Shown here: piece by piece, positions 3,113 through 19,364 of the stretch
Layout of the letters: the number at the start of each line of letters is the position of its first letter
Numbering within the stretch: the stretch's first letter is position 1
From: Martelella mediterranea
GTDB lineage: Bacteria > Pseudomonadota > Alphaproteobacteria > Rhizobiales > Rhizobiaceae
NCBI RefSeq assembly: GCF_021021415.1
Contig: NZ_JAINWJ010000049.1
Span: 1-64,000, forward strand
Reading direction: 5' to 3'
Length of the DNA stretch: 64,000 bases
Program-made: the position numbers and the translations under genes
Notes under the pieces: generated by a model
What the model was told of the DNA's origin: nothing
The model's input: the letters and a program-made list of their open reading frames with translations, nothing else
Database searches by the model: none

Positions 3113-3489
3113 CAGATAACCTCGTCGAAGATGAATGCAGAGATGGTCAGCGGCCGGCCGAGCATGTTGTAGAGCCTGAGCCGGTCGTAATAGGGCTCGA
3201 AACGGGCGTAGAAGGTCTTCTCGCCGGGGATGGTGTTGTCCGTTGCCTTGAGCACGATGAAGGGCGGAAGCCCGTAGTCTTTCGCCGTGTTGATCATCAC
3301 CGTGGAGGGCGGGCCGCCGGAAGAGCGCGCGGCAAGCCATGCGGTCACCACCTCCTTCGGCGTCAGCGGCCGCATGCCTTCCTTGATGGTCAGATGCTGG
3401 TCGGCCGCCGTCAGCGCATCGTGACTGGGCATGGAGACGCGAAAACGGAACGCGCCATTGTCATTGCCGATGAACACCCGCCGCGTCAT
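3112..3489 (-). CDS. Small phage tail-region protein, unknown
   Basis: A 125-residue protein starting [19 protein letters not shown]. It is predicted soluble and beta-rich, with no recognised domain. The start is fixed by an ATGA overlap with the preceding gene, and its stop overlaps the start of the fibre gene. This translational coupling and its place between tail-tip and fibre genes argue for a minor tail or fibre-connector role. The N-terminus resembles that of the next gene upstream (MARRIIIGRHPGFGVSGAF): both read basic residues, then IIIG or VFIG, then a G-rich turn. The pair may share a docking segment. Confidence 0.7.
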
Positions 3490-3956
3490 GTCGCCCTCTT
3501 CAGGATGATGTAATAGAAGTCGAAATCCGCGTTGCGCGGGCCGGTGTCGGCGTAGGTCTTGGCCTTGATCGTCCAGTTGTTTTCCAGCCAGACGCCGAAG
3601 AAGAACGGGACCTCGCCAAGCGTGGTGTCGCGATTGACGCAACTGCTTGTCGGGTAATAGTTGGAGTCCACCGGGACCGCGTTGGCATTGTGCGGATTGG
3701 CGTAGGTCATCGAGCCGTAGAACAGCGGCCTGTAGCCAAGGTCGGGGAAATTGACCGTCGCCCACCATGTCGAATAGCCGTTGCCGGTGGTCCGCCCCAT
3801 GCGAAAGCGGCCCTCGGCGTGCACCGCCACGTTCTGGTATCGGGAATCGAGCAGCAACGCGCCGGTCGGGTTGACGACGTCGTCGCCGGGCCGGCTCAGG
3901 AACGCGCCGGAAACGCCGAAGCCCGGATGTCTGCCGATGATGATGCGTCTCGCCAT
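3486..3956 (-). CDS. Phage tail-region protein, unknown
   Basis: A 156-residue protein rich in aromatic residues and glycine (RTTGNGYSTWWATVNFPDLG; FFFGVWLENNWTIKAKTY), suggesting an all-beta, exposed structural protein. It has no signal peptide or membrane helix. The ATG at 3956 follows the preceding stop by only two bases, and its TGA overlaps the next start in an ATGA. It belongs to a run of small genes between the tail-tip protein and the fibre, a position often taken by tail appendage proteins. I recognise no named family. Confidence 0.7.
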   Translation of the reverse strand: MARRIIIGRHPGFGVSGAFLSRPGDDVVNPTGALLLDSRYQNVAVHAEGRFRMGRTTGNGYSTWWATVNFPDLGYRPLFYGSMTYANPHNANAVPVDSNYYPTSSCVNRDTTLGEVPFFFGVWLENNWTIKAKTYADTGPRNADFDFYYIILKRAT

Positions 3957-3958
3957 GA

Positions 3959-4399
3959 TCAGACCCCAAACACGCGATAGTGGATGAGCCCGCGATATCG
4001 GCGATAGCCGCCGCCGGGGATGGACGGCCGAGAAAGCTCAAGCCGATCGGCATAGACCCTGGAACCATCTTCCACGGTGCTGTCTTCTATCCGCAGCTCG
4101 CCAAAGCCCGCGCCGTCATAGGGCGTGCTCGCGCCCTGGTTCTCGAAGGTGACATAGGCGGCCGGCACATAGCCGGGCGAGGGAAAGTGGATGACCAGCG
4201 GCGATGCGGTCGAGGTCAGGCCGTCGTTTCCGTTGACCGGCGCCGGGTCCGTGATGGTCCCGGCCGCGATCAAAACGCCTGAAAAATTCCAGTTGGAGTC
4301 AAACAGCTTGTGCCGGTCGGAAATCCCGCCGTCATAGGCATCATATCCTGGCTTGGTCAGCAGGATGCGGCCGGCCGTCATGAGAAATCGCGTTGCCAT
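3959..4399 (-). CDS. Phage tail-region protein, unknown
   Basis: A 146-residue protein (MATRFLMTAGRILLTKPGYDAYDGG), beta-rich, with no signal or membrane segment. Its start overlaps the stop of the large tail-tip gene (ATG at 4399, TGA at 4401-4399), so the two are translationally coupled. The opening LLTKPGYDA is the kind of N-terminus seen in small accessory proteins encoded directly after tail-tip proteins in rhizobial siphophage-like prophages; that match is from memory and weak. It is likely a minor tail component. Confidence 0.68.
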   Translation of the reverse strand: MATRFLMTAGRILLTKPGYDAYDGGISDRHKLFDSNWNFSGVLIAAGTITDPAPVNGNDGLTSTASPLVIHFPSPGYVPAAYVTFENQGASTPYDGAGFGELRIEDSTVEDGSRVYADRLELSRPSIPGGGYRRYRGLIHYRVFGV

Positions 4400-6501
4400 C
4401 AGTCGCTCACCGAAAGGTAATCATTGTCGAGATCGAGCCGCGTCTTGCCGCTGGAGCCGCGCAACAGACCGGCGACGATCGTGCCGATATGGCTGGCGTT
4501 GAGCTTCAGGACGCCGCCTTCGAACAGGAATGGCCGCTGGCCATTGTTGAGCACCACGAACTGGTCGGCGTTGACGGCAAAGCGTGAGCGCTGAACGCCG
4601 CCCTCGGTGTAGATTTCGAGGTAGAGGCCGCTTTCGTGATAGCCGCTGCCCGTGCCGGCCCTCAGGAGGACGGAGAAGCGGGCATTGACGCCGCTCTGGT
4701 TGGCGGTGGCTGCGAACTTCACCTGACCGGCCGCGAAGTTCTCGTTCAGCAACGCGGTCACGGCCGATGTCTGCTGCGCGATCGCCTCGTCGGCGGTCAC
4801 GCGCGCCTGGCGTTCCTCGACAACCGATGCGGAGACATCGACGATCTCGGCGCCGACCAGTTCAAGCGTCTGGGCAAGCGCTTCATCCTCACTGGCGCGC
4901 ACCAGCCTTTCCTCGATGATCTGCGCCAGCGCCTCGCCGCTCTGCTGACGCAAGACCTGACGGTCGAGAAGGCCGACGGAGCCTTGCAGCGAAAGCGCCG
5001 CTGCAAGCTCGGAGGAGCGCCTGATCGAGCGGTCGAGATCGGCCTGAAGCTCCTCGAAGCGCTTGCGGATGTCCTCGCCGACCGTATCCAGTCTGACGCC
5101 AAGGTCCTCCATGACATTCGGCGTTTCGACTTCCAGCCAGTCGGACCATGCCTGGTTCCGCACGAGGTCGGAGATGAACCGCCCGCGCGCCTCGACCCAT
5201 GTCTTCGACGGCAGCGGGCCGATCAGCCAGGAGTAGGGCTCCTCGTAAGCCGTCGTATGACCGGAAAACAGCATCTGGCCGGTGTCGCGGACGCGCACCT
5301 GCACGACCACGGCCGTCACGCCATCGATGCCCGCGCCACAGGAGACCTTGATGGCGGCCAACCGGCCGACGCCATTGCCATCGGCCATGGAGGCGGGCTC
5401 CACGGTCCAGCCCTTCATGATCTGCACCGGCGGCGTTCCCCGACCGAGCAGACCCGTCGTCGGCGGAATGACGATCGACGGCGGATCGTAGTCGGCGGGA
5501 TCGATCTCCTTGATCGTGACCTGGCTGAGCGAGCCCGGCAGGCGCGTCAGCGTGGTGATCTGGAAGGCCTTGTCCTGATAATTGTTGCGCGCGCTCGTCC
5601 AGGCGATCACGTCGCCGGCTTCCAGCAGGCGCGAGGGCGGCGGCAGAACGAGGGTGTGAACGCGCATCCGCCGCCCGTCCTCGATCATGGTCTTTTGCAG
5701 GTGCTGGACCTGCTCCGACCATGGCACGGCGGCGAAGGTCACCGATTGCGCCAGGCTGCGGCCATCGGCGGCAACCGCCGCGTCCTGGGCATATTCCGGC
5801 GCGTCCTTGCGCGCCCATTTGTCGCCCGGCTCGGGATAGGAGGCGGAGATCGTGTTGTGGGTATCGGAGAGCGACGGCCAGGGATCGAGCTGCTGCGGCT
5901 TGGTGATGATGACGTCCGCGTCGGTGAAGGCATAGACGGCCGCGCCTGGCCCGCCGACCGCGAGCTTCAGCACGCCGCCGCCCTCGACGAAGACGCCGTT
6001 GCAGGCAAGCCGGAACTGCTCCAGCACATCGAGCGGCTCGGCGCTGACATCGATCTCGATGCCGGCGCGATATTGCTGCGCGCCGTGTGCAGTTATGTCG
6101 CATTCGTTGGCGGCCGCCATCCAGTCGGACGGCGGAAGCCGGAGCGCCTCGACGTTCTGGCCGCCATAATACCAGCCGCCGGCGTGCCGCATGCCGCGGG
6201 CGATGTTGTAGGCGATCACGGCCGGACTAAGCGTTGGCGTCCAGGTCGCGGGATTATCGAAACGCTGCGGGCCAATGCCGCCGACGGTATCGTCGCGGTG
6301 CGGGTCGTAGAGCGGCAGCGGCGGCGGCTCGACCAGCACGGCCGGATTGCCGGAAAACAGATCGTCATTCTTCCGGAACGTGACGATGATCGCCTGCTTG
6401 CCACGGCCGATCATGGAGTGGCGATAGGGCTTTTCGACGTTGGCGAACTTCGAGAGGAAAAAGACGTCGGCCTCCGTCTGGGCGCCATCGAGATATCGCA
6501 C
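4399..6501 (-). CDS. Phage tail-tip (J-like) protein, 5' truncated
   Basis: About 700 residues of a tail-tip/host-specificity protein, the baseplate-hub part of long-tailed phages. The N-terminal third (DDTVGGIGPQRFDNPATWTP ... PAVIAYNIARG) matches the middle of such proteins. A long beta-rich region follows, then a coiled-coil stretch (about 480-590) and a C-terminal segment with RSRFAVNADQFVVLNN typical of DUF1983-like ends. The only usable start is an internal GTG at 6501, with no visible ribosome site. The frame stays coherent upstream for about 30 codons (HYPISEFRQDGKDHAW), then meets TGA near 6591. I infer that the original N-terminal portion was deleted, so the gene is probably non-functional. 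Confidence 0.8.
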   Translation of the reverse strand: MRYLDGAQTEADVFFLSKFANVEKPYRHSMIGRGKQAIIVTFRKNDDLFSGNPAVLVEPPPLPLYDPHRDDTVGGIGPQRFDNPATWTPTLSPAVIAYNIARGMRHAGGWYYGGQNVEALRLPPSDWMAAANECDITAHGAQQYRAGIEIDVSAEPLDVLEQFRLACNGVFVEGGGVLKLAVGGPGAAVYAFTDADVIITKPQQLDPWPSLSDTHNTISASYPEPGDKWARKDAPEYAQDAAVAADGRSLAQSVTFAAVPWSEQVQHLQKTMIEDGRRMRVHTLVLPPPSRLLEAGDVIAWTSARNNYQDKAFQITTLTRLPGSLSQVTIKEIDPADYDPPSIVIPPTTGLLGRGTPPVQIMKGWTVEPASMADGNGVGRLAAIKVSCGAGIDGVTAVVVQVRVRDTGQMLFSGHTTAYEEPYSWLIGPLPSKTWVEARGRFISDLVRNQAWSDWLEVETPNVMEDLGVRLDTVGEDIRKRFEELQADLDRSIRRSSELAAALSLQGSVGLLDRQVLRQQSGEALAQIIEERLVRASEDEALAQTLELVGAEIVDVSASVVEERQARVTADEAIAQQTSAVTALLNENFAAGQVKFAATANQSGVNARFSVLLRAGTGSGYHESGLYLEIYTEGGVQRSRFAVNADQFVVLNNGQRPFLFEGGVLKLNASHIGTIVAGLLRGSSGKTRLDLDNDYLSVSD

Positions 6502-6591: not shown

Positions 6592-6799
6592 ACGTTTGCG
6601 GTGATGTTGGCGCTCGGACGGATGGCTTTGCTGTAGGCTCAAAGCCGTTGCCGAGAATTCTGCCTGGTCCCTCGGGTCAAGCCCGAAGGTGACCCAAGCA
6701 AAGGGGGGGAGTTTGTGGAACGTACCGGAAATGCCGCTGAACTGGTTGGCCTCTTCGGGCTTGGCCTTTGCCGCTCTGCCTTTCTACGTCTACCGCCTC
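6592..6799. other. Junction between prophage remnant and chromosomal locus
   Basis: This stretch holds no convincing gene. It starts at the in-frame stop that ends the broken tail-tip frame and runs to the end of the RpiR-type regulator. It includes one half-unit of a palindromic intergenic repeat (see 6662-6693). I see no direct repeat that would mark an attachment site. Confidence 0.5.
6662..6693. repeat. Half-unit of a palindromic intergenic repeat
   Basis: The core CTCGGGTCAAGCCCGA lies between GCCTGG on the left and TGAC on the right. The same frame (GCCTGG, CTCGGGTCAAGCCCGA, TGAC, equal spacing) recurs at 11671-11702 inside a larger palindromic unit. The short palindrome TCGGG-TCAAG-CCCGA can fold. 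Elements of this sequence type are common intergenic repeats in alphaproteobacteria. This copy lies beside the prophage junction. Confidence 0.65.
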
Positions 6800-7684
6800 T
6801 CACCCCGGTCGCCGAAACAGCCGGCTCTGCTCGAACAGCCCCTCCAGCACGCTGATGCGTTCGCGGGTCTTGGCCCAGCTTTTCGATTGCACCGCCTCGA
6901 TCAGTGCCTCGGCCACGAACAAAGTGACGATCGAGGAGTCCCAGGCGGAGGGAACCTCGATGTGGACGCGGAAGGTGTGGCGGGCGAATTTGGCGACCGG
7001 GGAGGCCCACTGGTCGGTGAACAGGATGATTTCCAGCCCGTTTTCCTTCGCCACCCGCGCCAGCACCGCCATGTCCTGCTCGTAGCGACGGATATCGAAG
7101 ATCACCAGTACATCGCCCTCGGCCATGTTCAGCATGTGCTGCGGCCATGAGGAGGAGTTGGACGACATCAGCGTCGTCTTCGGCCGGATCACCTGCATAT
7201 GGGTGAAGAAATAGCTGGCGAGCGCGCCGGTGATGCGGCCGCCGACGAAATAGATCGCGCGATCGAGATCGGAGAGAAGCTCGGCGGCGCCTGAAAAGGT
7301 CGCTTGGTCGAGTTGTGACAGCGTGCGGCGCATATTGTCGATCGCGGCCTCGCCGAAGCGGTTCAGGATATGGGTCTCGGGCACGTTGCGGGCGAGGCGG
7401 TCATGCTTGGCGATCGGATTGGAAAGCGTCGCCTCCAGCTCCTGATGAAGCCGCGCCTGAAACTCGCCATAGCCTTTGAAACCGAGCTTCTGCACCATGC
7501 GGGCGACCGTCGGCGTCGACACTTCGGCGTTTTCGGCAAGCGTTGTGATGCTGCCGAGGCCGGAGACCGGATAGTTCTCCCGGATCGTGTCGGCCAGCCG
7601 CTTCTCTGACCGCGTCAGCCCCTCATAGCTGGCGGCGATAATGTCGGCGACTGTCCGGACTGGTTCGTTCACGCTCTGCTCCAT
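6800..7684 (-). CDS. RpiR/MurR-family transcriptional regulator
   Basis: A 294-residue regulator. The N-terminal HTH_6 DNA-binding domain (about 10-85) contains LTRSEKRLADTIRENY and the recognition region SITTLAENAEVSTPTVARMVQKLGFKG, written here in parts of the usual RpiR pattern. The C-terminal SIS-like sensor domain (about 120-260) shows IYFVGGRITGALASYF and later FDIRRYEQDMAVLARVAKENG. Such sensors normally bind a phosphosugar or a pathway metabolite. It is divergent from the adjacent catabolic operon with about 137 bases between starts, so it is very likely the local regulator. The inducer is unknown. A palindrome at 7733-7750 is a candidate operator. Confidence 0.9.
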   Translation of the reverse strand: MEQSVNEPVRTVADIIAASYEGLTRSEKRLADTIRENYPVSGLGSITTLAENAEVSTPTVARMVQKLGFKGYGEFQARLHQELEATLSNPIAKHDRLARNVPETHILNRFGEAAIDNMRRTLSQLDQATFSGAAELLSDLDRAIYFVGGRITGALASYFFTHMQVIRPKTTLMSSNSSSWPQHMLNMAEGDVLVIFDIRRYEQDMAVLARVAKENGLEIILFTDQWASPVAKFARHTFRVHIEVPSAWDSSIVTLFVAEALIEAVQSKSWAKTRERISVLEGLFEQSRLFRRPG

Positions 7685-7732
7685 GGTTCGCGCTCATTAA
7701 GAGATGCGGCGCCAATTCCGTCAATGGCAAAA

Positions 7733-7750
7733 ATGAAGAGAAGTTTTCAT
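7733..7750. promoter_or_regulatory. Candidate RpiR-type operator palindrome
   Basis: The 18-base sequence ATGAAGAGAAGTTTTCAT is an imperfect inverted repeat: ATGAAGA on one side, and ATGAAAA when the other arm is read on the opposite strand. RpiR-family regulators often bind GAAA/TTTC inverted repeats. It lies in the divergent region, 49 bases from the regulator start and just upstream of a perfect -35 element for the catabolic operon. Assignment to this regulator is inference. Confidence 0.45.
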
Positions 7751-7757
7751 CCTGCGA

Positions 7758-7786
7758 TTGACAACGTCGGCGTTCTGAAGAACTAT
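7758..7786 (+). promoter_or_regulatory. Candidate promoter of the catabolic operon
   Basis: A perfect TTGACA (7758-7763) is followed after 17 bases by AACTAT (7781-7786), a weak -10. The amidohydrolase gene starts 36 bases further on, preceded by an AGGGG ribosome site. The -35 is convincing and the -10 is poor, which suits an activated or tightly regulated promoter. Confidence 0.45.
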
Positions 7787-7821
7787 TTACAAAACAAGAA
7801 ATACAAAAATCAGGGGATCGG

Positions 7822-8592
7822 ATGCTGGAAATGTCGGGGCTCTTGAGCGCCCGCGACGGTGTGCCTGTTGCCATCGAACGCGCGGAAGCGAAAAGCGATA
7901 TCGTGCTGATCTGCGAACATGCCAGCCGGCGTGTTCCGGAGGCCCTCGGCGATATGGGGCTGAGCGAAGAGCTGCTCGAAAGCCATATTGCCTGGGACCC
8001 CGGCGCGCTTGCGGTTGCCATGCTGCTCAGTGAAGCGCTCGACGCCACCCTCATTCACCAGCGTTTCTCGCGGCTTGCCTATGACTGCAACCGGCCGCCC
8101 GAGGCGAAGGATGCCATTCCGGAAATCAGCGAAGTTTTCGGGGTCCCCGGCAATCGTGGTCTGAGTACGGCCGAACGCGACGCCCGGGCGGATGCGCTCT
8201 ACCACCCGTTCCACAAGGCGATCGATGATCTGCTTGTCGCGCGCCAGAATGCCGGGCGTTCGCCCGTGATCGTCACCATCCATTCCTTCACGCCGGTCTT
8301 CAAGGGCGTCACGCGCGATGTCGAGATCGGCATTCTGCATGACAGCGACAGCCGGCTTGCCGATTGCATGCTGGCAAAGGTCGCGGGCGGATACGACGTG
8401 CGCCGCAACGAACCCTATGCACCTGTCGATGGCGTGACCCACACGCTGCGTCGCCATGCGCTGTCGCGTCGGCTCCCGAATGTCATGATCGAAATCCGCA
8501 ACGATCTGATTGCCGACCCGGCCGGGCAGGCGAAGGCCGCGGGCTTCATCGCCGGGCTTCTCGGCGAGTGCATTGGCGGGGAGGCCGGATGA
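7822..8592 (+). CDS. N-formylglutamate amidohydrolase family hydrolase
   Basis: A 256-residue metal-dependent amidohydrolase of the FGase family, which classically cleaves N-formyl-glutamate to glutamate and formate. Family motifs seen are CEHAS (31-35), AWDPGA (58-63), FSRLAYDCNRP (82-92) and the metal-site region THSFTP-like IHSFTPVF (153-160). No histidine-degradation (hut) genes are nearby. It is the first gene of an operon with a TRAP transporter, a gamma-glutamyl ligase and two dehydrogenases, and its stop overlaps the next start (ATGA). I therefore infer that it hydrolyses an N-substituted glutamate or gamma-glutamyl amide made by this pathway, rather than formylglutamate itself. Confidence 0.85.
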   Translation: MLEMSGLLSARDGVPVAIERAEAKSDIVLICEHASRRVPEALGDMGLSEELLESHIAWDPGALAVAMLLSEALDATLIHQRFSRLAYDCNRPPEAKDAIPEISEVFGVPGNRGLSTAERDARADALYHPFHKAIDDLLVARQNAGRSPVIVTIHSFTPVFKGVTRDVEIGILHDSDSRLADCMLAKVAGGYDVRRNEPYAPVDGVTHTLRRHALSRRLPNVMIEIRNDLIADPAGQAKAAGFIAGLLGECIGGEAG

Positions 8593-9101
8593 TGCCGCAG
8601 GCGATCAGGACCTATGTGCGCTATGTCGACGGCTTCAACCGCGTGGTCGGGCGCATCGCGATGTGGCTGATCTTCGTGATGATGGGCATCCTGCTGTGGT
8701 CGTCGATCTCGAAGACCATGTTCAACCCGTCGCTCTGGACGCTGGAAATGGCGCAGTTCGTGATGACCGCCTATTACATCCTCGGCGGCGCCTATTCGCT
8801 TCAGCTCGACAGCCATGTGCGCATGGACCTGATCTATGGCCGCTGGACGCCGCGCCAGAAGGCGGCGGTCGATGCCATCACGGTGATCATGCTGTTCACC
8901 TACCTCATCTTTCTGCTGATCGGCGGGGTGTCCTCCACCCAATACGCGCTGAAATACGGCGAGACCTCCTATTCAAGCTGGTCGCCCTATATGGCGCCGA
9001 TCAAGATCGTCATGGTGGCCGGCATTTTCCTGATGTTCCTGCAGACCACATCGATCTTCTTCAAGGATCTGGCGAAAGCGCTGGGGAGGGACATGGCATG
9101 A
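8589..9101 (+). CDS. TRAP transporter small permease (DctQ-like)
   Basis: A 170-residue inner-membrane protein with four predicted transmembrane helices (around residues 20-42, 55-73, 93-115 and 133-152), the standard layout of the TRAP small subunit. The motif WTLEMAQFVMTAYYILGGAY around helix 2 is typical. The start ATG at 8589 overlaps the stop of the amidohydrolase, and its stop overlaps the start of the large permease, so all three are coupled. Longer in-frame upstream sequence exists but lies inside the amidohydrolase and is not used. It works with the large permease and binding protein in sodium-driven solute uptake. Confidence 0.92.
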   Translation: MMPQAIRTYVRYVDGFNRVVGRIAMWLIFVMMGILLWSSISKTMFNPSLWTLEMAQFVMTAYYILGGAYSLQLDSHVRMDLIYGRWTPRQKAAVDAITVIMLFTYLIFLLIGGVSSTQYALKYGETSYSSWSPYMAPIKIVMVAGIFLMFLQTTSIFFKDLAKALGRDMA

Positions 9102-10426
9102 ACCTCTCCTATGAAATGATCGCGCTTCTGCTGTTCTTCTCGATGATGATGACCATGCTGACCGGCCAGCGCGTGTTCGCGGCGATCGGCTTTGTCGGCG
9201 TGGTGGCGGCAGCCGCGCTCTGGGGCACGGGCGGCACCGAACTCGGATTCTCGGCCAGCATGAAGCTGATGAAGTGGTATCCGATGCTGACGCTGCCGCT
9301 GTTCATTTTCATGGGCTACATGCTGTCGGAATCGGGCATTGCCGAAGACCTCTACAAAGCGTTCCACGTCTGGATGGGCGGGTTGCCCGGTGGCCTTGCG
9401 GTCGGAACCATCGGGCTGATGGTGGTGATTTCGGCCATGAACGGCTTGTCGGTCGCCGGCATGGCGATCGGCGCGACCATTGCGCTGCCGGAACTCCTGA
9501 GGCGCGGCTATGACAAGATCATGGTCTCGGGCGTCATTCAGGCCGGTTCCTCGCTCGGCATTCTGGTGCCGCCGAGCGTGGTTCTGGTGCTTTACGGCAT
9601 GATCGCCCGCCAGCCGGTTGGCAAGCTCTGGGTCGCGGGCGCGCTGCCGGGCCTGATGCTCGCCGCTATGTTTGTGATCTACATCGTCATCCGCTGCCGC
9701 ATGAACCCGGCGCTCGGGCCCGCGCTTCCCAAGGAAGAGCGCGACATGCCGCTGGCCGAGAAGCTGAAGCTGCTCAGGGCCGGCATCATCCCGTTCCTGA
9801 TCTTCTTCCTGATGATGGGCCTGTTCCTGATGGGCGTCACCAGCCTGACGGAAAGTGCAGCGATCGGCGCGCTTTCGGCGCTGGTCGCCGCCCTCGTCAA
9901 GCGTCGCCTGACATGGAAGCTCTTGAACCGGACGATGGAGCAGACGCTCGGCATTTCCTGCATGTTCATGTGGATCATCGTCGCCGCCCTCTGCTTCGGC
10001 GCGGTATTCGATGGGCTTGGCGCGGTCCGGGCGCTGGAGCATCTGCTGCTCGAAAAATGGGAACTCGGCCCCTGGGAAATCCTGATCCTGATGCAGATTT
10101 CCTACATCATCATGGGCACGTTCCTCGATGACACGGCGATGCTGGTGATTGTCGCGCCGCTTTACGTGCCGCTGGTCGGTCATCTTGGCTTCGATCTCGT
10201 CTGGTATGGCGTGCTCTATACCATCACCTGCCAGATCGCCTATATGACGCCGCCCTTCGGCTACAATCTCTTTCTCATGCGGGCCATGGCCCCGCCCGAA
10301 ATATCGCTTGTCGATATCTACCGCTCCGTCTGGCCGTTCGTGATCATCATGATCATCGGTCTGGCGATCGTCACGGCATTCCCGCAGATCGCGCTGTGGC
10401 TGCCGAACCTTGTCTATGCGCGCTGA
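9098..10426 (+). CDS. TRAP transporter large permease (DctM-like)
   Basis: A 442-residue multi-spanning membrane protein of the DctM family with about 11-12 hydrophobic helices. It forms the transport channel of a TRAP system driven by the sodium gradient. Recognisable segments include LPLFIFMGYMLSESGIAEDL near residue 67, the conserved turn IQAGSSLGILVPPSVVLVLYG around 147-167, and TPPFGYNLFLMRAMAPPE near 383. The start is fixed by ATGA overlap with the small permease. About 90 bases separate it from the binding-protein gene. TRAP systems mostly take up carboxylates or zwitterions; this one's substrate is probably the precursor of the pathway encoded downstream. Confidence 0.94.
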   Translation: MNLSYEMIALLLFFSMMMTMLTGQRVFAAIGFVGVVAAAALWGTGGTELGFSASMKLMKWYPMLTLPLFIFMGYMLSESGIAEDLYKAFHVWMGGLPGGLAVGTIGLMVVISAMNGLSVAGMAIGATIALPELLRRGYDKIMVSGVIQAGSSLGILVPPSVVLVLYGMIARQPVGKLWVAGALPGLMLAAMFVIYIVIRCRMNPALGPALPKEERDMPLAEKLKLLRAGIIPFLIFFLMMGLFLMGVTSLTESAAIGALSALVAALVKRRLTWKLLNRTMEQTLGISCMFMWIIVAALCFGAVFDGLGAVRALEHLLLEKWELGPWEILILMQISYIIMGTFLDDTAMLVIVAPLYVPLVGHLGFDLVWYGVLYTITCQIAYMTPPFGYNLFLMRAMAPPEISLVDIYRSVWPFVIIMIIGLAIVTAFPQIALWLPNLVYAR

Positions 10427-10516
10427 GGGAGCGGGAGGCGCGCTGGAGCCGGCTTTGCCGGGAAAATGCGAAATGCGGCATGAGGCCGGATTTCGATAAA
10501 ACAGAGGGAAACGGAC

Positions 10517-11563
10517 ATGAACAGCAGACGTACATTTCTCAGGAATGCCGGTCTGGCGACAGCAGCCGGCGCATCCGCGCTCGCCGCGCCCGCCGTCGTT
10601 CGCGCGCAGTCGAAGATCACCTGGCGCCTCCAGACCTATGCCGGTCCGGCGCTGGCCGAACATGTGGTGAAGGACTGCATCGACAACTTCAACAAGGCGG
10701 CGAACGGCGAGATGGAGATCCAGCTCTTCACCGCCGACCAGTTGGTGCCGACCGGCGAACTGTTCCGCGCCATGCAGGCCGGCACGATCGACGCCGTTCA
10801 GTCGGACGACGATTCGATGAACTCGCCGCTCGATATCAAGGTATTCGGCGGCTACTTCCCCTTCGCCTCGAAGTTCAGCCTCGATGTGCCGACGCTGTTT
10901 TATGAATACGGACTCGCCGATATCTGGGAGAAGGCCTATTCGGAGGTCGGCGTGCAGTGGATTTCCGCCGGCGCCTGGGACCCGTGCAACTTCGCCACCG
11001 TCAATCCGGTCAAGAGCCTGTCCGATCTCGAAGGACTGCGCATCTTCACCTTCCCGACGGCCGGCAAGTTCCTGTCGCAGTTCGGCGTCGTGCCGGTCAC
11101 GCTGCCCTGGGAAGACGTGCAGGTTGCGATGCAGACCGGCGAGCTTGACGGTCTGGCATGGTCGGGCATCACCGAGGACTACACCGTCGGCTGGGCGGAT
11201 GTGACCAACTACTTCCTGACCAACAACATTTCCGGCGGCTGGTGCGGCTCGTTCTTCGTCAATTCTGACAAGTGGGCGGAGGTGCCGGAGCACCTCAAGG
11301 TGCTGTTCCGCATGTGCACGGATTCATCGCACCTCCACCGCCTGCACTGGTACTGGGGCGGGGAGGCCCGGTTGCGCGCCCATGGCGAGAAGCTGGAACT
11401 GACCACCATTCCGGATGCCGAATGGAAGACGGTGGAAGATGCCGCCGATGCCTTCTGGGACGAGATCGCCGCCGAGACCGACCGCACGGCGGAAGTCGTC
11501 AAGATCCTGAAGCAGTATCAGGCCGACATGAACGCCGCCGGCCCGCCCTACCGCGCCGGCTGA
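10517..11563 (+). CDS. TRAP transporter substrate-binding protein (DctP-like)
   Basis: A 348-residue periplasmic binding protein. The N-terminus has a twin-arginine signal (RRTFLRNAG, then an alanine-rich stretch ending near AVVRAQ, residue 31), so it is probably exported folded by Tat. The mature part shows DctP features: TWRLQTYAGPALAEHV at the start, the GELFRAMQAGTIDAVQ region, and SLSDLEGLRIFTFPTAGKFL followed by VVPVTLPWEDVQVAMQTGELDG, which carries the family's ligand-carboxylate pocket region. It resembles the Tat-exported, long-chain binding proteins used for amides or keto acids rather than the C4-dicarboxylate type; that subgrouping is tentative. AGAGGGAAACGG is its ribosome site. 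Confidence 0.92.
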   Translation: MNSRRTFLRNAGLATAAGASALAAPAVVRAQSKITWRLQTYAGPALAEHVVKDCIDNFNKAANGEMEIQLFTADQLVPTGELFRAMQAGTIDAVQSDDDSMNSPLDIKVFGGYFPFASKFSLDVPTLFYEYGLADIWEKAYSEVGVQWISAGAWDPCNFATVNPVKSLSDLEGLRIFTFPTAGKFLSQFGVVPVTLPWEDVQVAMQTGELDGLAWSGITEDYTVGWADVTNYFLTNNISGGWCGSFFVNSDKWAEVPEHLKVLFRMCTDSSHLHRLHWYWGGEARLRAHGEKLELTTIPDAEWKTVEDAADAFWDEIAAETDRTAEVVKILKQYQADMNAAGPPYRAG

Positions 11564-11627
11564 TTGACGAGGCTGCCGGGGCGGGAAGTGTTTCTGTTCG
11601 CCAAGCCGTCCCTCCTTTTCTGAGTCA

Positions 11628-11703
11628 CCCTCGGGCTTGACCCGAGGGTCCAGGCAGCGTTCTCCGTGTCGCCTGGATGCTCGGGTCAAGCCCGAGCATG
11701 ACG
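11628..11703. repeat. Palindromic intergenic repeat unit
   Basis: A mosaic of palindromes. CCCTCGGG-CTTGA-CCCGAGGG (11628-11648) is a perfect 8-base stem, GCTCGGG-TCAAG-CCCGAGC (11679-11697) is a perfect 7-base stem, and CCAGGC/GCCTGG arms enclose the region between them. Its right half matches 6662-6693. It lies between the binding-protein and ligase genes, where it could act as an RNA processing or attenuation site. Confidence 0.75.
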
Positions 11704-11763
11704 CATGAGAGGGGAAGAGGCCGGTGCACACCGTATGCCCGGGCAGCCACACCATTGACACCG

Positions 11764-11793
11764 GTCGTCCGGAGTGTTCCTGCTCCGGACGAC
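11764..11793 (+). promoter_or_regulatory. Strong inverted repeat upstream of the ligase gene
   Basis: The arms GTCGTCCGGAG (11764-11774) and CTCCGGACGAC (11783-11793) are perfectly complementary over 11 bases around an 8-base loop. The structure ends 24 bases before the chosen ATG of the glutamine-synthetase-like gene. No T-run follows, so it is not a simple terminator. It could be an RNA stem controlling translation or stability, or a regulator's operator. Confidence 0.6.
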
Positions 11794-11817
11794 TGCATGA
11801 ACCACAGGATGAACCCG

Positions 11818-13191
11818 ATGAGCGCGGAATACACATTCAACCAACTGAAAAAGGATGTCGCGGACGGCAGCATCGACACCGTTCTCGTCTGCCAGATCGA
11901 CATGCAGGGTCGCCTGATGGGCAAGCGTTTCACGGGGACGCATTTCGTCGATAGCGCCCACAAGGAAACCCATAGCTGCAATTACGTCCAGGCGACCGAC
12001 ATGGAGATGCACACCGTCGAAGGCTATGCCGCGACGAGCTGGGCTTCTGGTTATGGCGACTACACCATGACGCCCGATCTTTCGACGCTGCGCCGCGTGC
12101 CTTGGCTGGAAGGCACTGCGCTGGTGCTGTGCGATGTGTCCGACCACGCTACCCATTCGGTCGTCGCCCATTCGCCGCGCGCGATCCTGAAGAAACAGAT
12201 CGCCCGGCTGGAAGACCACGGCTACCGCGCCTTCATGGCGACGGAGCTGGAGTTCTTCCTGTTCAACCAGACATTCGAGAGCGCACAGCAATCCGGCTAT
12301 CGCGGGCTGACCCGCTCCAGCGCCTATAACGAGGACTACCACATTCTCCAGACCACCAAGGAGGAGGATGTGATGCGGGCGATCCGCAACGGCTTGCAGG
12401 GCGCGGGTATCCCGGTCGAAAACACCAAGGGCGAGGCGGATGCGGGGCAGGCGGAACTGAATGTCCGCTATGCCGATGCGCTGACCATGGCCGACCGCCA
12501 CGTGATCGCCAAGAATGCCTGCAAGGAAATCGCCTGGCAGAAGGGAAAGGCCGTCACCTTCATGGCCAAGTGGAATTACGACGCAGCCGGCAACTCCTCC
12601 CATGTCCATCAGTCGCTGTGGAGCAAGGATGGCAAGACGCCGCTGTTCTACGATCCCGACGGGCGGTTCGGCATGTCGAAGCTGATGGAGCATTATGTGG
12701 CCGGCCTGCTCGCCCATTCCGCCGAGATCACCTATTTCCTGGCGCCCTATATCAATTCCTACAAGCGCTTCATGGCAGGCACCTTCGCGCCCACCAAGGC
12801 GATTTGGTCGAAGGACAACCGCACGGCCGGCTTCCGCCTTTGCGGTGATCATTCGAAAGGCATCCGCATCGAATGCCGCGTCGGCGGCGCCGATCTCAAT
12901 CCCTATCTCGCCTTTGCGGCGCTTCTGGCGGCGGGTCTCGACGGCATCGAGAAGGAAATGACGCTGGAGGAGCCCTATGTCGGCGACGCCTATGGCAGCG
13001 CCGCCGATGTCCGAGAAATCCCGAAGACATTGCGCGCCGCGCGCGAGGCGCTGAACGGCTCCGACATGCTGCGCAAGGCCTTCGGCGACGATGTGATCGA
13101 CCATTATTGCCGCGCGGCGGAATGGGAGCAGGAAGAATATGACCGCCGCGTCACGGACTGGGAAGTGGCGCGCGGGTTCGAACGCGCCTGA
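11818..13191 (+). CDS. Glutamine-synthetase-like gamma-glutamyl ligase
   Basis: A 457-residue member of the glutamine synthetase superfamily, resembling gamma-glutamyl-polyamine/amine synthetases (PuuA, GlnA3/GlnA4, IpuC types) more than housekeeping GlnA. The metal and glutamate site is seen at MATELEFFLF (140-149), GEADAGQAELNVRY (205-218) and SHVHQSLW (261-268). The ATP/phosphate arginine region is at GIRIECRVGGADLNPYLA (348-365). It should join glutamate to an amine using ATP. The start was chosen for an AGGA site 8 bases upstream of ATG 11818; ATGs at 11797 and 11809 are possible. It is followed by two dehydrogenases, which supports a role in amine or amino-alcohol catabolism. Confidence 0.88.
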   Translation: MSAEYTFNQLKKDVADGSIDTVLVCQIDMQGRLMGKRFTGTHFVDSAHKETHSCNYVQATDMEMHTVEGYAATSWASGYGDYTMTPDLSTLRRVPWLEGTALVLCDVSDHATHSVVAHSPRAILKKQIARLEDHGYRAFMATELEFFLFNQTFESAQQSGYRGLTRSSAYNEDYHILQTTKEEDVMRAIRNGLQGAGIPVENTKGEADAGQAELNVRYADALTMADRHVIAKNACKEIAWQKGKAVTFMAKWNYDAAGNSSHVHQSLWSKDGKTPLFYDPDGRFGMSKLMEHYVAGLLAHSAEITYFLAPYINSYKRFMAGTFAPTKAIWSKDNRTAGFRLCGDHSKGIRIECRVGGADLNPYLAFAALLAAGLDGIEKEMTLEEPYVGDAYGSAADVREIPKTLRAAREALNGSDMLRKAFGDDVIDHYCRAAEWEQEEYDRRVTDWEVARGFERA

Positions 13192-13242
13192 CTTTGAGCG
13201 GCGCGAGCGAAACGAGATTATCAAGACAACAGGATGCCGATC

Positions 13243-14628
13243 ATGACAATGATCCAATGTATCTCGCCGGTCGACGGATCGGTCTATGCCGAGCGCGGGG
13301 CGCTTTCGGCCACGGCGGCGAAGAGCGCCGTTGAGCGGGCGCGCGTGGCGCAGAAGGAATGGGCCGCACGGCCGCTTTCGGAGCGGATCGCGCTGGTGCA
13401 GGCCGGCGTGAAGGCGCTCAACGCCATGAGCGACGAGGTGGTGCAGGAGCTTGCCTGGATGATGGGCCGGCCGGTGCGCTATGGCGGTGAGTTCGGCGGC
13501 GTTAACGAGCGCGCGGACTATATGGCGAAGATCGCCGAACAGGCGCTGGCGCCGATCGAGGTCGAGGACAGCGGCGATTTTCGCCGTTACATCGCCCGCG
13601 AGCCGCACGGCGTCGTTCTCGTCATTGCGCCGTGGAACTACCCCTATCTGACGTCGATCAACACCATCGTGCCGGGCCTGATCGCCGGCAATGCGGTGAT
13701 CATCAAGCATGCCAGCCAGACGCTGCTGGTCGGCGAGCGTATCGTGAAGGCCTTCGTCTCCGCCGGAATTCCCGAGGACCTGTTCCAGAACATCTTCCTC
13801 GATCATGCGACGACCAGCGAGCTGATTGCCGTAAAAACCTTTGATTTCATCAACTTCACCGGTTCCGTTGAAGGCGGGCGTGAAATGGAGCGGGCCGCCG
13901 CCGGCACCTTCACCCCGCTCGGCCTGGAGCTTGGCGGCAAGGATCCGGGCTATGTCATGGACGACGCCGATCTCGACGCCGCCGTCGCGACGCTGATGGA
14001 CGCGGCGATGTTCAATGCCGGCCAGTGCTGCTGCGGCATCGAGCGCATTTATGTGATCGACAGCCTCTACGACGCCTTCGTGGAAAAGGCGGTGGCCTTT
14101 GCTTCCGCCTACAAGCTCGGCAATCCGCTCGACAGCGAAACCACGCTCGGCCCGATGGCGCACAAGCGGTTCGCCGCGGTCGTGCGCCAGCAGATCGAAG
14201 AGGCGGTTGCCGCCGGCGCAAAGGCGTTGGTCGATCCGGCGCTGTTTCCGGAAGATGACGGCGGCGCCTATCTCGCCCCGCAGGTGCTGGTCGATGTCGA
14301 TCACTCGATGAGCGTGATGCGGGAGGAAAGCTTCGGCCCCGTCGTCGGGATCATGAAGGTGTCGTCCGATGAGGAGGCGCTGACGCTGATGAACGACAGC
14401 CAGTACGGCCTGACAGCATCGCTGTGGACTGAAGATGCCGACCGCGCGGCAGCACTTGGCGCGCGGATCGAGACGGGCACCATCTTCATGAACCGCGCCG
14501 ATTATCTCGACCCCGGCCTGTGCTGGACCGGCTGCAAGAATACCGGGCGCGGCGGATCGCTCTCGGTCATCGGTTTCCACAATCTCACCCGGCCGAAATC
14601 CTATCATCTGAAGAAAGTCACGAAATGA
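13243..14628 (+). CDS. NAD(P)-dependent aldehyde dehydrogenase
   Basis: A 461-residue aldehyde dehydrogenase, soluble, oxidising an aldehyde to the acid. The conserved parts are present: APWNYPYL cofactor region (129-136), FTGSVEGG (205-212), the general base Glu in LELGGKDPG (about 229), the catalytic Cys in FNAGQCCCG (about 263), and ESFGPVVG near 372. The start ATG at 13243 has AGGA at 8 bases; ATG at 13234 would sit directly on that site. Its stop overlaps the start of the alcohol dehydrogenase (ATGA). The substrate is probably the aldehyde produced by the neighbouring alcohol dehydrogenase, perhaps still attached to a gamma-glutamyl group. Confidence 0.93.
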   Translation: MTMIQCISPVDGSVYAERGALSATAAKSAVERARVAQKEWAARPLSERIALVQAGVKALNAMSDEVVQELAWMMGRPVRYGGEFGGVNERADYMAKIAEQALAPIEVEDSGDFRRYIAREPHGVVLVIAPWNYPYLTSINTIVPGLIAGNAVIIKHASQTLLVGERIVKAFVSAGIPEDLFQNIFLDHATTSELIAVKTFDFINFTGSVEGGREMERAAAGTFTPLGLELGGKDPGYVMDDADLDAAVATLMDAAMFNAGQCCCGIERIYVIDSLYDAFVEKAVAFASAYKLGNPLDSETTLGPMAHKRFAAVVRQQIEEAVAAGAKALVDPALFPEDDGGAYLAPQVLVDVDHSMSVMREESFGPVVGIMKVSSDEEALTLMNDSQYGLTASLWTEDADRAAALGARIETGTIFMNRADYLDPGLCWTGCKNTGRGGSLSVIGFHNLTRPKSYHLKKVTK

Positions 14629-15770
14629 GCCCGAGAGCCAATTGGAGCTATCCGACCGCCATAAAATTCGGCGCCGGACGGATCGTCGAACTTGCCGATG
14701 CCTGCAACAGCCTCGGCATCAAGCGCCCGCTGCTGGTCACCGACAAGGGGCTGGCCGGCCTGCCGATCACCAGACAAGCGCTGGCGATCCTCGCCGATGG
14801 CGGGCTTGAGGCGGGCCTGTTTTCCGATGTCGACCCCAATCCGAACGAGAACAACCTCGCCGCCGGCGTGAAGGCCTATGTCAATGGCGGCCATGACGGC
14901 GTGATCGCCTTTGGCGGCGGTTCGGGCCTCGATCTCGGCAAGCTGGTGGCGATGATGCCGGGCCAGACCCGTCCGGTCTGGGATTTCGAGGATATCGGCG
15001 ACTGGTGGACGCGGGCGGATGCCAGCAAGATCGCGCCGATCATCGCGGTGCCGACCACGGCGGGCACCGGTTCGGAAGTCGGCCGGGCAGGGGTTCTCAC
15101 CAATTCCGAAACCCATGTGAAAAAAATCATCTTTCACCCGAAACTGCTGCCGGGCATCGTCATCTGCGATCCCGAACTGACGGTCGGCATGCCGAAGGTG
15201 ATCACCGCGGGCACCGGGCTCGATGCGCTGGCGCATTGCCTGGAGGCCTATTGCTCGCCGCATTACCACCCGATGTCGCAGGGAATCGCGCTTGAGGGCA
15301 TGCGGTTGGTTAAGGACAATCTCCCGCGCGTCTATGCGGATGGCAACGATATCGACGCCCGCGCGGAGATGATGAGCGCCGCCGCCATGGGCGCCGTTGC
15401 CTTCCAGAAAGGCCTCGGCGCGATCCATGCGATCTCCCATCCCATCGGCGCGGTCTACAACACCCATCACGGCATGACCAACGCCGTGGTGATGCCGCCG
15501 GTGCTGCGCTTCAATCGCGAGAAGATTGAGGGCAGGCTGAAGTTGGCTGCTGATTATCTTCAGATTTCAGGTGGTTATGAAGGTTTTTACAACTTCATTC
15601 TGGAGTTCAGGGCGGCTCTTGATGTGCCGGATACGCTGACGGCCATGGGCATCAAGCCGGACAGGATCGATGAACTGGCGGCAATGGCCATGGAAGACCC
15701 GAGCACCGGCGGCAATCCGGTCGAGATGACTCTGGCGAACACCAAAGCGTTGCTCGCCGATTGCTTCTGA
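14625..15770 (+). CDS. Iron-containing alcohol dehydrogenase
   Basis: A 381-residue group III (Fe/Zn) alcohol dehydrogenase that oxidises an alcohol to an aldehyde with NAD. The cofactor loop is GGGSGLDLGK (about 97-106), followed by VPTTAGTGSEVG. The metal site is formed by Asp and His in GLDALAHCLEAY (about 199-210) and by the histidines in AISHPIGAVYNTHHG (about 269-283). All expected ligands are present. It is coupled to the aldehyde dehydrogenase by a 4-base overlap and is the last gene of the catabolic operon, followed by a strong hairpin. In this context it should act on the hydroxyl group of the transported or glutamylated substrate. Confidence 0.94.
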   Translation: MSPRANWSYPTAIKFGAGRIVELADACNSLGIKRPLLVTDKGLAGLPITRQALAILADGGLEAGLFSDVDPNPNENNLAAGVKAYVNGGHDGVIAFGGGSGLDLGKLVAMMPGQTRPVWDFEDIGDWWTRADASKIAPIIAVPTTAGTGSEVGRAGVLTNSETHVKKIIFHPKLLPGIVICDPELTVGMPKVITAGTGLDALAHCLEAYCSPHYHPMSQGIALEGMRLVKDNLPRVYADGNDIDARAEMMSAAAMGAVAFQKGLGAIHAISHPIGAVYNTHHGMTNAVVMPPVLRFNREKIEGRLKLAADYLQISGGYEGFYNFILEFRAALDVPDTLTAMGIKPDRIDELAAMAMEDPSTGGNPVEMTLANTKALLADCF

Positions 15771-17015: not shown

Positions 17016-19364
17016 CTAGAAACTGCCGCCGAAATTGTCGGAGCCGATCGCGATATCGCCGAGCGTGCGCAACGTCAGGCGCGCGCCGATCGTCCAGTCG
17101 ACGCCCTTGGCGTCGTCGGTGTCCCAGCTTTCCTGGTAGGTGATCGAGAACAGGGTGCAGATGTCCTCATAGGTCAACCCTACCCAGCGGCGCGTCAGGA
17201 CATTGTTGCTGAGGTCGTAGGTCAACGAGCCCGAGACGCCCCAATTGTCGTTGAACCGGAAGGTGCTGGTGGATTTAATCTCGCTGTTGCGCTCGTCATA
17301 GGCATAGCCGGGCTGGGCCATGACATTGGTGTAGTCGAGCGCGGTGTCGAAGCGGGCGGAGGTGTAGGTGATGCCGGCATCCGTGCGCTGCAGCGAAAAA
17401 TCGGTCTCGTCGAAACGGGCGGAGGCGTTGAGGCCGACGCCGAAGGGGAAAGAAATCTGGGCCGCGCCGACATAATCGGAGCGTTCTGTTTCAAGCCCGG
17501 ATTCCATACCGACGCCAACCAGATCCGGTGAGGCGAACGAGTTCGCGCCGGCAAGCTGGAAGGACTGGCCGAAAAGCCCGTCGACCATGATTCCGTTGTC
17601 GTAGACGCCGCGATAGCGCAGCCCGATATTGGCGCGGGTGCCGCCCTCGACGCGATCATAGCCGGAGAACTTGTCGCGATCAAACAGCGTGGTGGCATCG
17701 AACACGAAGCTCTGGCTGTCCTCGTTCGGCAGCCCGCCGGCATACCGCTCGTCCGGGCGGACGAAGATCTGGCCGATCGGCTCGACGATATGCGAGCTGA
17801 AGCCGTTGGTGATCAGCATCGGGTATTTGACTTCCAGGCCCGCCGTCAGCATGGCACGGGCGGCGGCATCCTGATCGACGAAATTGCCGGCGTAGTTGTA
17901 GGTGCCCGGCGCGATCTGGTTCGGATTGTCGACGTTCAGCAGGTAACCGTCGGCGCGCGCGGCCAGGATCGGCGTAAGCTGGAGGCCCTGCGGCGTTGTG
18001 AAGGTCTTCTTCCACTCGACCTCGCTGGTCAGCCGCGTGCTGTTGCCCTGAAGCCCAAGGAAGCGGTCGTTGACCGTGGTCTCGACAACATCGTTCTTCT
18101 GCCGGACGATATTTGTGAGGTTGTTGGTCACGGAAAGTTCGCCGCCGGCGAACGGGCGCGGGGCGATATAATCGTAATCGATCACCGGCAGAACGATCGC
18201 CTGCTCGTCCTCGTTGGCGTTCTGGCTGTTGGCGTCCTGAACGTCGAAATAATTGCCCTTGATGGAGAGCGAACTGCGCTTGCCGAGACCTTCCAGATAG
18301 ACCTGGTTATTGAAAATCCGGTCGTCATGGCCGTCAATCGAATAGGTCCGCGCGAAATTGGTGTCGCTCTGCACCATGACATCCCAGCCGAACACCCAGC
18401 GCGGGTTGATCTGGAACTCGCCGGTGGAGGCGATCATGCCGCGCAGGTCATTGTCGGCATCGCTGGTGCCGGCGGGGAAGCGGCTGCTGCCCAACTGGTC
18501 GATGCCGGCCATGCGCAGCGTGTGCTGGCCGTTGCGGTAGCGCTTGCGATACTCCGCCTCAAGCAGGAAGCCCTGCTGGGTGTAGCCTGTCCCGGTGAAG
18601 GTGACGTCCGCGCTCGGGCCAAGCGGAATGTAGTAAGGCACGGAAATGCCGAAGCCGAGATTCTCCTCGACGGTTGCCGAGGGGAACAGAAAACCGCGCT
18701 TGCGCTTTACGCTGGCGTCGGGAACCGTCACGGTCGGCAGGATCGCGATGGTGTGGCCCAGAAGCTGGAATCGCGGATGCTCCAGCCGCACCGTCTTTTC
18801 GACGCCGTTCTGGATGACGCGCTGGGCCCTGATCTGCCAGAAGGGCGGCTTTTCCGGATTTTCCGCGCAGGGAATGCAGGCGGTGTAGACGCCGTTTTCC
18901 AGCACCATGACATCATTGTCGATTCGCTCGGCGCGCTCGCCGGCGATCGCGATATCTTCCGGGGTGCGCACGCTGATGGCTTCGAGAAAGCCGTTGGCGA
19001 AGTCGTCGGTGACGTCGAGCTTTTCGGCGCGCAGGCGATTGCCGTCGGGGTCGACGACCTCGATGCCGCCGAAGGCCAACAGCTTGCCGGCCTTCTGGTC
19101 ATATTCGACCTTGTTGGCGACCATGCGGTAGCCGGCGTAATAAATCTGCACGCCGCCAAGCGCGTAGACCTGCTGGGTGTCGTGGTTATAGACCAACTCA
19201 TTGGCGCTGAGCAGCATCGGGCCCTGGTCGTCGGCGGGGGGCTCCGGAAGCACGCTTTCCTGCGCTCCGGCCGTGTAATGCAGCCCCGCTCCGGGTGGGG
19301 TCAATGCGGTGGCAAGGACCAAGAGCCCGGCAAGGCGATATGCGCTTAGTTTACGCCGGGCCAC
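17016..19364 (-). CDS. lptD: LPS-assembly outer membrane protein LptD
   Basis: A 782-residue outer-membrane protein that, with LptE, inserts lipopolysaccharide into the outer leaflet. It has an N-terminal signal peptide (about 1-34, ending near TAGAQ). An OstA/LptA-like beta-jellyroll lies around 50-160 (LLSANELVYNHDTQQVYALG), followed by a large beta-barrel to the C-terminus. The CIPC cysteine pair near residues 163-166 and a late cysteine in YEDICTLF are candidates for the disulfides that lock the plug in LptD proteins. The start overlaps the stop of lptG by one base. It is the last gene of lptF-lptG-lptD, which carry the two permeases and the terminus of the LPS bridge. Confidence 0.95.
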   Translation of the reverse strand: MARRKLSAYRLAGLLVLATALTPPGAGLHYTAGAQESVLPEPPADDQGPMLLSANELVYNHDTQQVYALGGVQIYYAGYRMVANKVEYDQKAGKLLAFGGIEVVDPDGNRLRAEKLDVTDDFANGFLEAISVRTPEDIAIAGERAERIDNDVMVLENGVYTACIPCAENPEKPPFWQIRAQRVIQNGVEKTVRLEHPRFQLLGHTIAILPTVTVPDASVKRKRGFLFPSATVEENLGFGISVPYYIPLGPSADVTFTGTGYTQQGFLLEAEYRKRYRNGQHTLRMAGIDQLGSSRFPAGTSDADNDLRGMIASTGEFQINPRWVFGWDVMVQSDTNFARTYSIDGHDDRIFNNQVYLEGLGKRSSLSIKGNYFDVQDANSQNANEDEQAIVLPVIDYDYIAPRPFAGGELSVTNNLTNIVRQKNDVVETTVNDRFLGLQGNSTRLTSEVEWKKTFTTPQGLQLTPILAARADGYLLNVDNPNQIAPGTYNYAGNFVDQDAAARAMLTAGLEVKYPMLITNGFSSHIVEPIGQIFVRPDERYAGGLPNEDSQSFVFDATTLFDRDKFSGYDRVEGGTRANIGLRYRGVYDNGIMVDGLFGQSFQLAGANSFASPDLVGVGMESGLETERSDYVGAAQISFPFGVGLNASARFDETDFSLQRTDAGITYTSARFDTALDYTNVMAQPGYAYDERNSEIKSTSTFRFNDNWGVSGSLTYDLSNNVLTRRWVGLTYEDICTLFSITYQESWDTDDAKGVDWTIGARLTLRTLGDIAIGSDNFGGSF

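What the first reader, a model, noticed from the sequence alone, without database searches (positions are those of the whole stretch)
6800..15770. A possible gamma-glutamylation pathway for an amino alcohol, built around a TRAP importer
Seen: one locus holds an RpiR-type regulator, an FGase-family hydrolase, a full TRAP importer, a glutamine-synthetase-like ligase, an aldehyde dehydrogenase and an iron alcohol dehydrogenase, mostly coupled by ATGA overlaps. Known: in IpuC-type isopropylamine and GlnA4-type ethanolamine use, an amine is first joined to glutamate, then the alcohol and aldehyde are oxidised, then the amide is hydrolysed. Inferred: this locus has all four chemical steps (ligase, alcohol oxidation, aldehyde oxidation, amide hydrolysis), and the hydrolase is an FGase relative instead of the usual gamma-glutamyl hydrolases. 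I know of no described route with this exact composition.
Basis: partly seen in the sequence, partly recalled or inferred. Interest (0 to 1): 0.82.

Follow-up and report, generated by a model that had tools for sequence, protein, structure and literature searches.

The report
Known ethanolamine-eating gene cluster in Martelella
This is an eight-gene cluster that most likely imports ethanolamine and turns it into glycine by temporarily joining it to glutamate; the same cluster, in the same gene order, is already described in other bacteria, so it is ordinary.

Summary
The genes are real: a divergent RpiR regulator, FGase, TRAP small and large permeases, TRAP binding protein, GS-like ligase, ALDH and iron ADH, at 6800-15770. 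The inferred chemistry is probably right, but the likely substrate is ethanolamine and the route is not new. The binding protein's best PDB match is 4uab (540 bits), the ethanolamine-bound Csal_0678 of Chromohalobacter (PMC12410723, passage). The same eight genes in the same order are published as the ethanolamine operon of Phaeobacter MED193 (PMC10132767, passages), which credits earlier work in C. salexigens and Agrobacterium C58. A 2022 review lists the C. salexigens enzymes as PF00120, PF00465, PF00171 and PF05013 (FGase) (PMC9397018, passages). Of 80 loci kept from 308 EtoX relatives, 38 carry all eight genes, all 38 in the same order and orientation. Verdict: already known; a Martelella copy of a described operon. 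One small observation goes beyond the passages read: in other bacteria the same importer sits beside a second module (a distant ligase plus a class-I glutamine amidotransferase), never together with FGase in these loci. No enzyme was assayed here.

The parts
6800..7684 (-). RpiR-family regulator (HTH_6 + SIS), divergent from the operon; probable regulator of it
   Evidence: PF01418, PF01380; an RpiR gene heads the Phaeobacter MED193 list and is divergent at this place in 38 of 38 complete loci
7822..8592 (+). FGase-family hydrolase, predicted gamma-glutamylglycine amidohydrolase (GGAH)
   Evidence: PF05013 157.5 bits; only PDB relative 2odf, Atu2144; published assignment of PF05013 to this step
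8589..9101 (+). TRAP small permease (EtoV-like)
   Evidence: PF04290; ATGA overlap with FGase
9098..10426 (+). TRAP large permease (EtoW-like)
   Evidence: PF06808; TIGR00786 over its cut-off
10517..11563 (+). TRAP solute-binding protein, predicted ethanolamine binder (EtoX-like)
   Evidence: 4uab_A 540 bits over residues 31-346; Phe177 in place of the usual Arg; Glu220 invariant in 81 of 81
11818..13191 (+). Glutamine-synthetase-like ligase, predicted gamma-glutamylethanolamide synthetase (the listed ORF starts at 11677; the start at 11818 is my choice)
   Evidence: PF00120; best PDB 11zs and 5dm3, 645 and 624 bits, next best 186; all four ammonium-site positions differ from this genome's GlnA
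13243..14628 (+). Aldehyde dehydrogenase, predicted gamma-glutamyl-aldehyde dehydrogenase
   Evidence: PF00171; no cut-off reached among the 25 of 44 NCBIfam rows shown
14625..15770 (+). Iron-containing alcohol dehydrogenase, predicted gamma-glutamylethanolamide dehydrogenase
   Evidence: PF00465, PF25137; none of 14 NCBIfam rows reaches its cut-off, the best being 4-hydroxybutyrate dehydrogenase at 344 of 500 bits

Best explanation
The locus is the known TRAP-linked ethanolamine utilisation operon. EtoVWX imports ethanolamine. The GS-like ligase joins it to glutamate with ATP to give gamma-glutamylethanolamide. The iron ADH oxidises the alcohol to the aldehyde, the ALDH oxidises that to gamma-glutamylglycine, and the FGase-family enzyme releases glycine and glutamate. 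The RpiR protein probably controls expression. Gene content, order and homology are shown here; substrate, reactions and regulation are inferred from published homologues.
For: The binding protein matches 4uab at 540 bits, the next structure being at 69 bits; 4uab is Csal_0678 with ethanolamine bound. The TRAP carboxylate Arg is Phe177 here, against Arg in 16 of 17 aligned paralogues of the same genome and Gly in one, as expected for a ligand without a carboxylate. Glu220 is invariant in 81 of 81. The four positions of this genome's GlnA at the ammonium site (Asp, Ser, Tyr, Glu) read Glu, Ala, Asp, Phe in the ligase; PMC6529630 reports the Glu-to-Phe change in a model of the ethanolamine ligase GlnA4. 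The Phe holds in 48 of 49 window-type ligases, the other being a gap. The same operon order is published for Phaeobacter MED193, where hydrolase, binding protein, ligase, ALDH and ADH rise on phosphorylethanolamine and EtoX binds ethanolamine with Kd 7.9 uM. The Pfam families agree with those listed for C. salexigens. 38 of 80 loci have the full cluster in order. No EutB match in this genome.
Against: No assay of the Martelella proteins is known to me. No enzyme reaches a specific curated NCBIfam cut-off (for the ALDH only 25 of 44 rows were shown), and the best ADH and ALDH rows carry other substrates' names. The primary paper (Vetting et al. 2015) is not held; of papers citing this pathway, one calls it demonstrated and another calls it predicted in silico. 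In Phaeobacter the binding protein also rose under phosphorus starvation without the ethanolamine headgroup. In 7 FGase+ligase loci with at least about 2 kb downstream, no ALDH or ADH of this set is seen.
Confidence: 0.93

Rival explanations
1. The same chemistry acts mainly on another small amino alcohol, such as alaninol, serinol or 3-aminopropanol.
For: The family binds a small amino alcohol; from recall only, entry 4xf5 is the same protein with 2-amino-1-propanol (one search shows only that the two entries share the sequence).
Against: The closest characterised homologues bind ethanolamine, and the published operon rises on phosphorylethanolamine. Sequence alone cannot exclude a close analogue.
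Confidence: 0.04
2. The ligase is an ordinary glutamine synthetase and the FGase an ordinary N-formylglutamate deformylase, next to an unrelated TRAP importer.
For: Family names only: PF00120 and PF05013.
Against: A separate GlnA-like gene exists (471 bits), and the ligase differs from it at all four ammonium-site positions examined. Two other FGases of the genome fit PF05013 far better (244 and 243 bits, against 158). The operon FGase has only 26-37% identity, in local alignments, to the three other FGases. The genes are co-conserved in order in 38 of 80 loci.
Confidence: 0.02

Closest known systems
Ethanolamine operon of Phaeobacter sp. MED193 (RpiR-GGAH-EtoVWX-ETAGA-GAADDH-GETADH; PMC10132767, abstract and passages seen)
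   Same: Same eight genes, same order. A roseobacter relative, Ruegeria sp. B32 (L119), has an annotated N-formylglutamate amidohydrolase at that place and 47-75% protein identity to the window genes.
   Different: Sequence and host. I did not have the MED193 sequences, so that its GGAH is an FGase is inferred from Ruegeria and.
Ethanolamine pathway of Chromohalobacter salexigens (Csal_0678; Vetting et al. 2015, not held, seen only through other papers)
   Same: Binding protein homologue 4uab; enzymes listed as PF00120, PF00465, PF00171, PF05013.
   Different: Gammaproteobacterial host; gene order there not checked here.
GlnA4 pathway of Streptomyces coelicolor (PMC6529630, passages seen)
   Same: Gamma-glutamylation of ethanolamine, then two predicted oxidations and amide hydrolysis.
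   Different: The cluster figure lists a putative transporter, a short-chain dehydrogenase and, as orf5, a glutamine amidotransferase; no TRAP importer or iron ADH is named there.
IpuC isopropylamine route (recalled, no call)
   Same: Amine first joined to glutamate.
   Different: Different substrate and gene set.

Membership tests
TRAP-linked ethanolamine gamma-glutamylation operon (EtoVWX type) | Eight genes in the published order | tested here: met
   38 of 80 relatives identical in order and strand
TRAP-linked ethanolamine gamma-glutamylation operon (EtoVWX type) | Binding protein of the Csal_0678/EtoX family, without the carboxylate Arg | tested here: met
   540 bits to 4uab; place 177 is Phe in 80 of 81 and Leu in 1
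TRAP-linked ethanolamine gamma-glutamylation operon (EtoVWX type) | Platform Glu of the ethanolamine site (Glu220 in Csal_0678) | tested here: inconclusive
   Glu220 of the window protein is invariant in 81 of 81, but in the 4uab chain it falls at index 217, so equality with the paper's Glu220 depends on a 3-residue numbering shift that I did not verify
TRAP-linked ethanolamine gamma-glutamylation operon (EtoVWX type) | Enzyme families PF00120, PF00465, PF00171, PF05013 | tested here: met
   against the table quoted
TRAP-linked ethanolamine gamma-glutamylation operon (EtoVWX type) | Ethanolamine binding, ligation and growth | not testable with these tools
   Needs bench work
Glutamine synthetase (glutamine-forming GlnA) | Ammonium-site residues Asp50, Ser53, Tyr179, Glu327 (Salmonella numbering; Ser53 recalled, the others named) | tested here: not met
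   Glu, Ala, Asp, Phe in the window ligase; Asp, Ser, Tyr, Glu in this genome's GlnA. The first three columns lie near gaps and are less certain.
Cobalamin-dependent Eut ethanolamine ammonia-lyase pathway | EutB present | tested here: not met
   No PF06751 match at E 0.001 in the genome; the E. coli control matches

The most novel reading that the evidence does not exclude
One ethanolamine TRAP importer has been combined with two different chemistry modules that replace each other: FGase hydrolase with the window-type ligase (Phe flap), or class-I glutamine amidotransferase with a distant ligase (about 30% identical, Trp flap). FGase and amidotransferase never occur in the same locus (0 of 80). 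If functional, this is non-orthologous replacement of the hydrolase, and use of a distant ligase, within one pathway.
Probability: 0.55. Interest if true: 0.28.

Novelty: already known. Interest (0 to 1): 0.12.

Why it matters
Ethanolamine from phospholipids is a nitrogen and carbon source (abstract of PMC10132767), and this operon would explain how Martelella could use it without the cobalamin Eut enzymes. It also bears on automatic names: the "N-formylglutamate amidohydrolase" and "glutamine synthetase family protein" labels used for these genes in Ruegeria and Paracoccus are better read as gamma-glutamylglycine amidohydrolase and gamma-glutamylethanolamide synthetase. It opens no new question by itself.

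Tried and rejected
Considered and rejected: ordinary GlnA (ammonium-site positions differ, separate GlnA present); ordinary formylglutamate deformylase (two other FGases fit PF05013 far better); cobalamin Eut route (no EutB match). A scan of 7600-12000 found no promoter-like site (shuffles 1.0) and 2 terminator-like sites (shuffles 3.4), so it says nothing. Literature searches for Atu2144, for gamma-glutamyl + ethanolamine + N-formylglutamate + TRAP transporter and for ethanolamine + TRAP transporter + glutamine amidotransferase returned no paper. Martelella + ethanolamine gave 5 papers, seen as a listing only for this question. Vetting 2015 is not held.

Rows and limits: the 80 loci are the best 80 of 308 confirmed relatives of the binding protein, so close relatives are over-represented and relatedness was not corrected for. 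Two loci with window-type ligase but no FGase (L011, L017) are cut at the contig end upstream of the small permease; L020 is cut downstream. In one search two rows are the window itself and were dropped; 17 of the 27 other DctP genes of the genome were aligned, the other 10 were not recovered. Loci were typed by ligase identity (window type 60% or more; distant type under 45% to the window, or over 45% to two distant-type queries). One of the 24 distant-type loci, L075, has its ligase upstream and only 27% like the distant-type queries, so it is probably a third kind. Amidotransferases: 3 of the 12 were confirmed by Pfam, the other 9 by similarity only (41-93%). The 9 Pseudomonas loci with distant ligase, ALDH and ADH showed neither FGase nor an amidotransferase like my three queries; their hydrolase was not found.

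Full report
What is there. The window lies in a 5.4 Mb genome whose nearest named relative by the binding protein is Martelella limonii (98% identity, L004); the genus is inferred from that. The RpiR gene points away; the other seven run forward. ATGA overlaps join 3 of 6 forward junctions (read).

What the importer carries. The binding protein is a modest DctP by Pfam (69.5 bits) but matches PDB 4uab at 540 bits, the next structure being at 69 bits. PMC12410723 (passages) states that 4UAB is Csal_0678 of Chromohalobacter salexigens with ethanolamine bound by a platform Glu220. PMC4646407 (passage) notes that this protein lacks the Arg that TRAP proteins use to hold carboxylates. In the window protein that place is Phe177; among 17 aligned paralogues of the same genome, 16 have Arg and one Gly. 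Across the window and 80 relatives the place is Phe in 80 of 81 and Leu in 1, and Glu220 is invariant in 81 of 81. That this Glu is the paper's Glu220 is likely but rests on a numbering shift that I did not verify.

What the enzymes are. The ligase matches two structures, 11zs and 5dm3, at 645 and 624 bits; the next GS structure is at 186 bits. From recall, not from a call, 5dm3 is the neighbouring C. salexigens gene. Aligned with this genome's GlnA, the four ammonium-site positions Asp, Ser, Tyr, Glu read Glu, Ala, Asp, Phe (the first three lie near gaps). PMC6529630 (passages) reports Glu-to-Phe at the last position in a model of the ethanolamine ligase GlnA4. Phe323 holds in 48 of 49 window-type ligases, the other (L005) being a gap. 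The FGase has a single PDB relative, 2odf, Atu2144, and in local alignments only 26-37% identity to the three other FGases of its genome. All 48 operon FGases from the loci match the window copy best among the four (the window copy itself was the 49th query). The genome has no EutB match.

Is the cluster conserved? Of the best 80 loci (out of 308 relatives), 38 hold all eight genes with the window-type ligase, and all 38 keep order and strand. Eight more hold FGase and ligase without ALDH or ADH (L020 among them is cut by the contig end). Two have ligase, ALDH and ADH but are cut before FGase. Two have FGase but no ligase, four the importer only, two ALDH and ADH without ligase. The remaining 24 have a distant ligase: 12 with an amidotransferase plus ALDH and ADH, 9 with ALDH and ADH but no hydrolase found, 3 without either. 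Two of 17 matching plasmid records were opened: Ruegeria sp. B32 and Paracoccus denitrificans PD1222 both have the eight genes in order, with the hydrolase annotated N-formylglutamate amidohydrolase, at 46-75% identity to the window proteins.

Is it known? Yes. PMC10132767 (Sci Adv 2023; abstract and passages) gives the Phaeobacter MED193 operon as RpiR, GGAH, EtoV, EtoW, EtoX, ETAGA, GAADDH, GETADH, the same order as here. Five of its proteins rise on phosphorylethanolamine, and EtoX binds ethanolamine with a Kd of 7.9 uM; EtoX also rose under phosphorus starvation. The paper says the genes are closely related to a pathway demonstrated in C. salexigens and A. tumefaciens C58. PMC6529630 calls the C. 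salexigens pathway predicted in silico and names a formylglutamate amidohydrolase family member for the last step in S. coelicolor. PMC9397018 (passages) lists the C. salexigens enzymes as PF00120, PF00465, PF00171 and PF05013. The primary paper is not held, so I cannot say which enzyme steps were assayed.

What may be left. Amidotransferase and FGase never share a locus (0 of 80), and each goes with its own ligase type: 46 of 48 window-type loci have FGase, the other two being cut at the contig end, and 0 of 24 distant-type loci have it. The 12 amidotransferase loci are from Vibrio, Photobacterium, Alginatibacterium, Halopseudomonas, one Pseudomonas MAG and Thalassospira. The distant ligase has Trp at the flap place in 23 of 24, one being a gap; L075 is an odd member with a poor alignment there. 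PMC6529630 gives Trp at that place in PauA7 and labels orf5 of the GlnA4 cluster a glutamine amidotransferase. So the two modules are each known in part; their exchange beside one importer is an inference. One search for it (ethanolamine, TRAP transporter, glutamine amidotransferase) found no paper in the held library.

Verdict. Shown: genes, order, homology, conservation. Inferred: substrate, reactions and regulation in this organism.

Noticed in passing
window 6672-6686, 11631-11645, 11681-11695: The 15-base sequence TCGGGTCAAGCCCGA occurs three times exactly in the window, beside and inside the operon and outside its genes; none is expected by chance. The two copies between the binding protein and the ligase lie in opposite orientation.
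   Followed up: partly
window 2156-6501 (-): Phage tail genes (tail collar domain, Phage-tail_3, tail tip) lie directly beside the operon, with a D12-class adenine DNA methyltransferase at 514-1362; prophage or gene-transfer-agent remnant, not tested.
   Followed up: no
window 17016-21591 (-): LPS export genes: LptD and two LptF/LptG permeases.
   Followed up: no
L042, L068 (Pseudomonas): EtoX importer with ALDH and iron ADH but no ligase found in the locus.
   Followed up: no
L009, L010, L048, L071: EtoX importer without ligase, hydrolase or dehydrogenases of this set nearby; some neighbours of L009, L048 and L071 were scanned, among them urocanase, ThiC and DUF4202.
   Followed up: partly
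L005:11138-11917: The ligase match is 93% identical but covers only 260 residues in one piece; a frame break or assembly fault is possible, not checked.
   Followed up: no
L119:12204-14435 (Ruegeria sp. B32): A radical SAM RiPP maturation gene and an NHLP-clan gene sit right after the ethanolamine operon.
   Followed up: no
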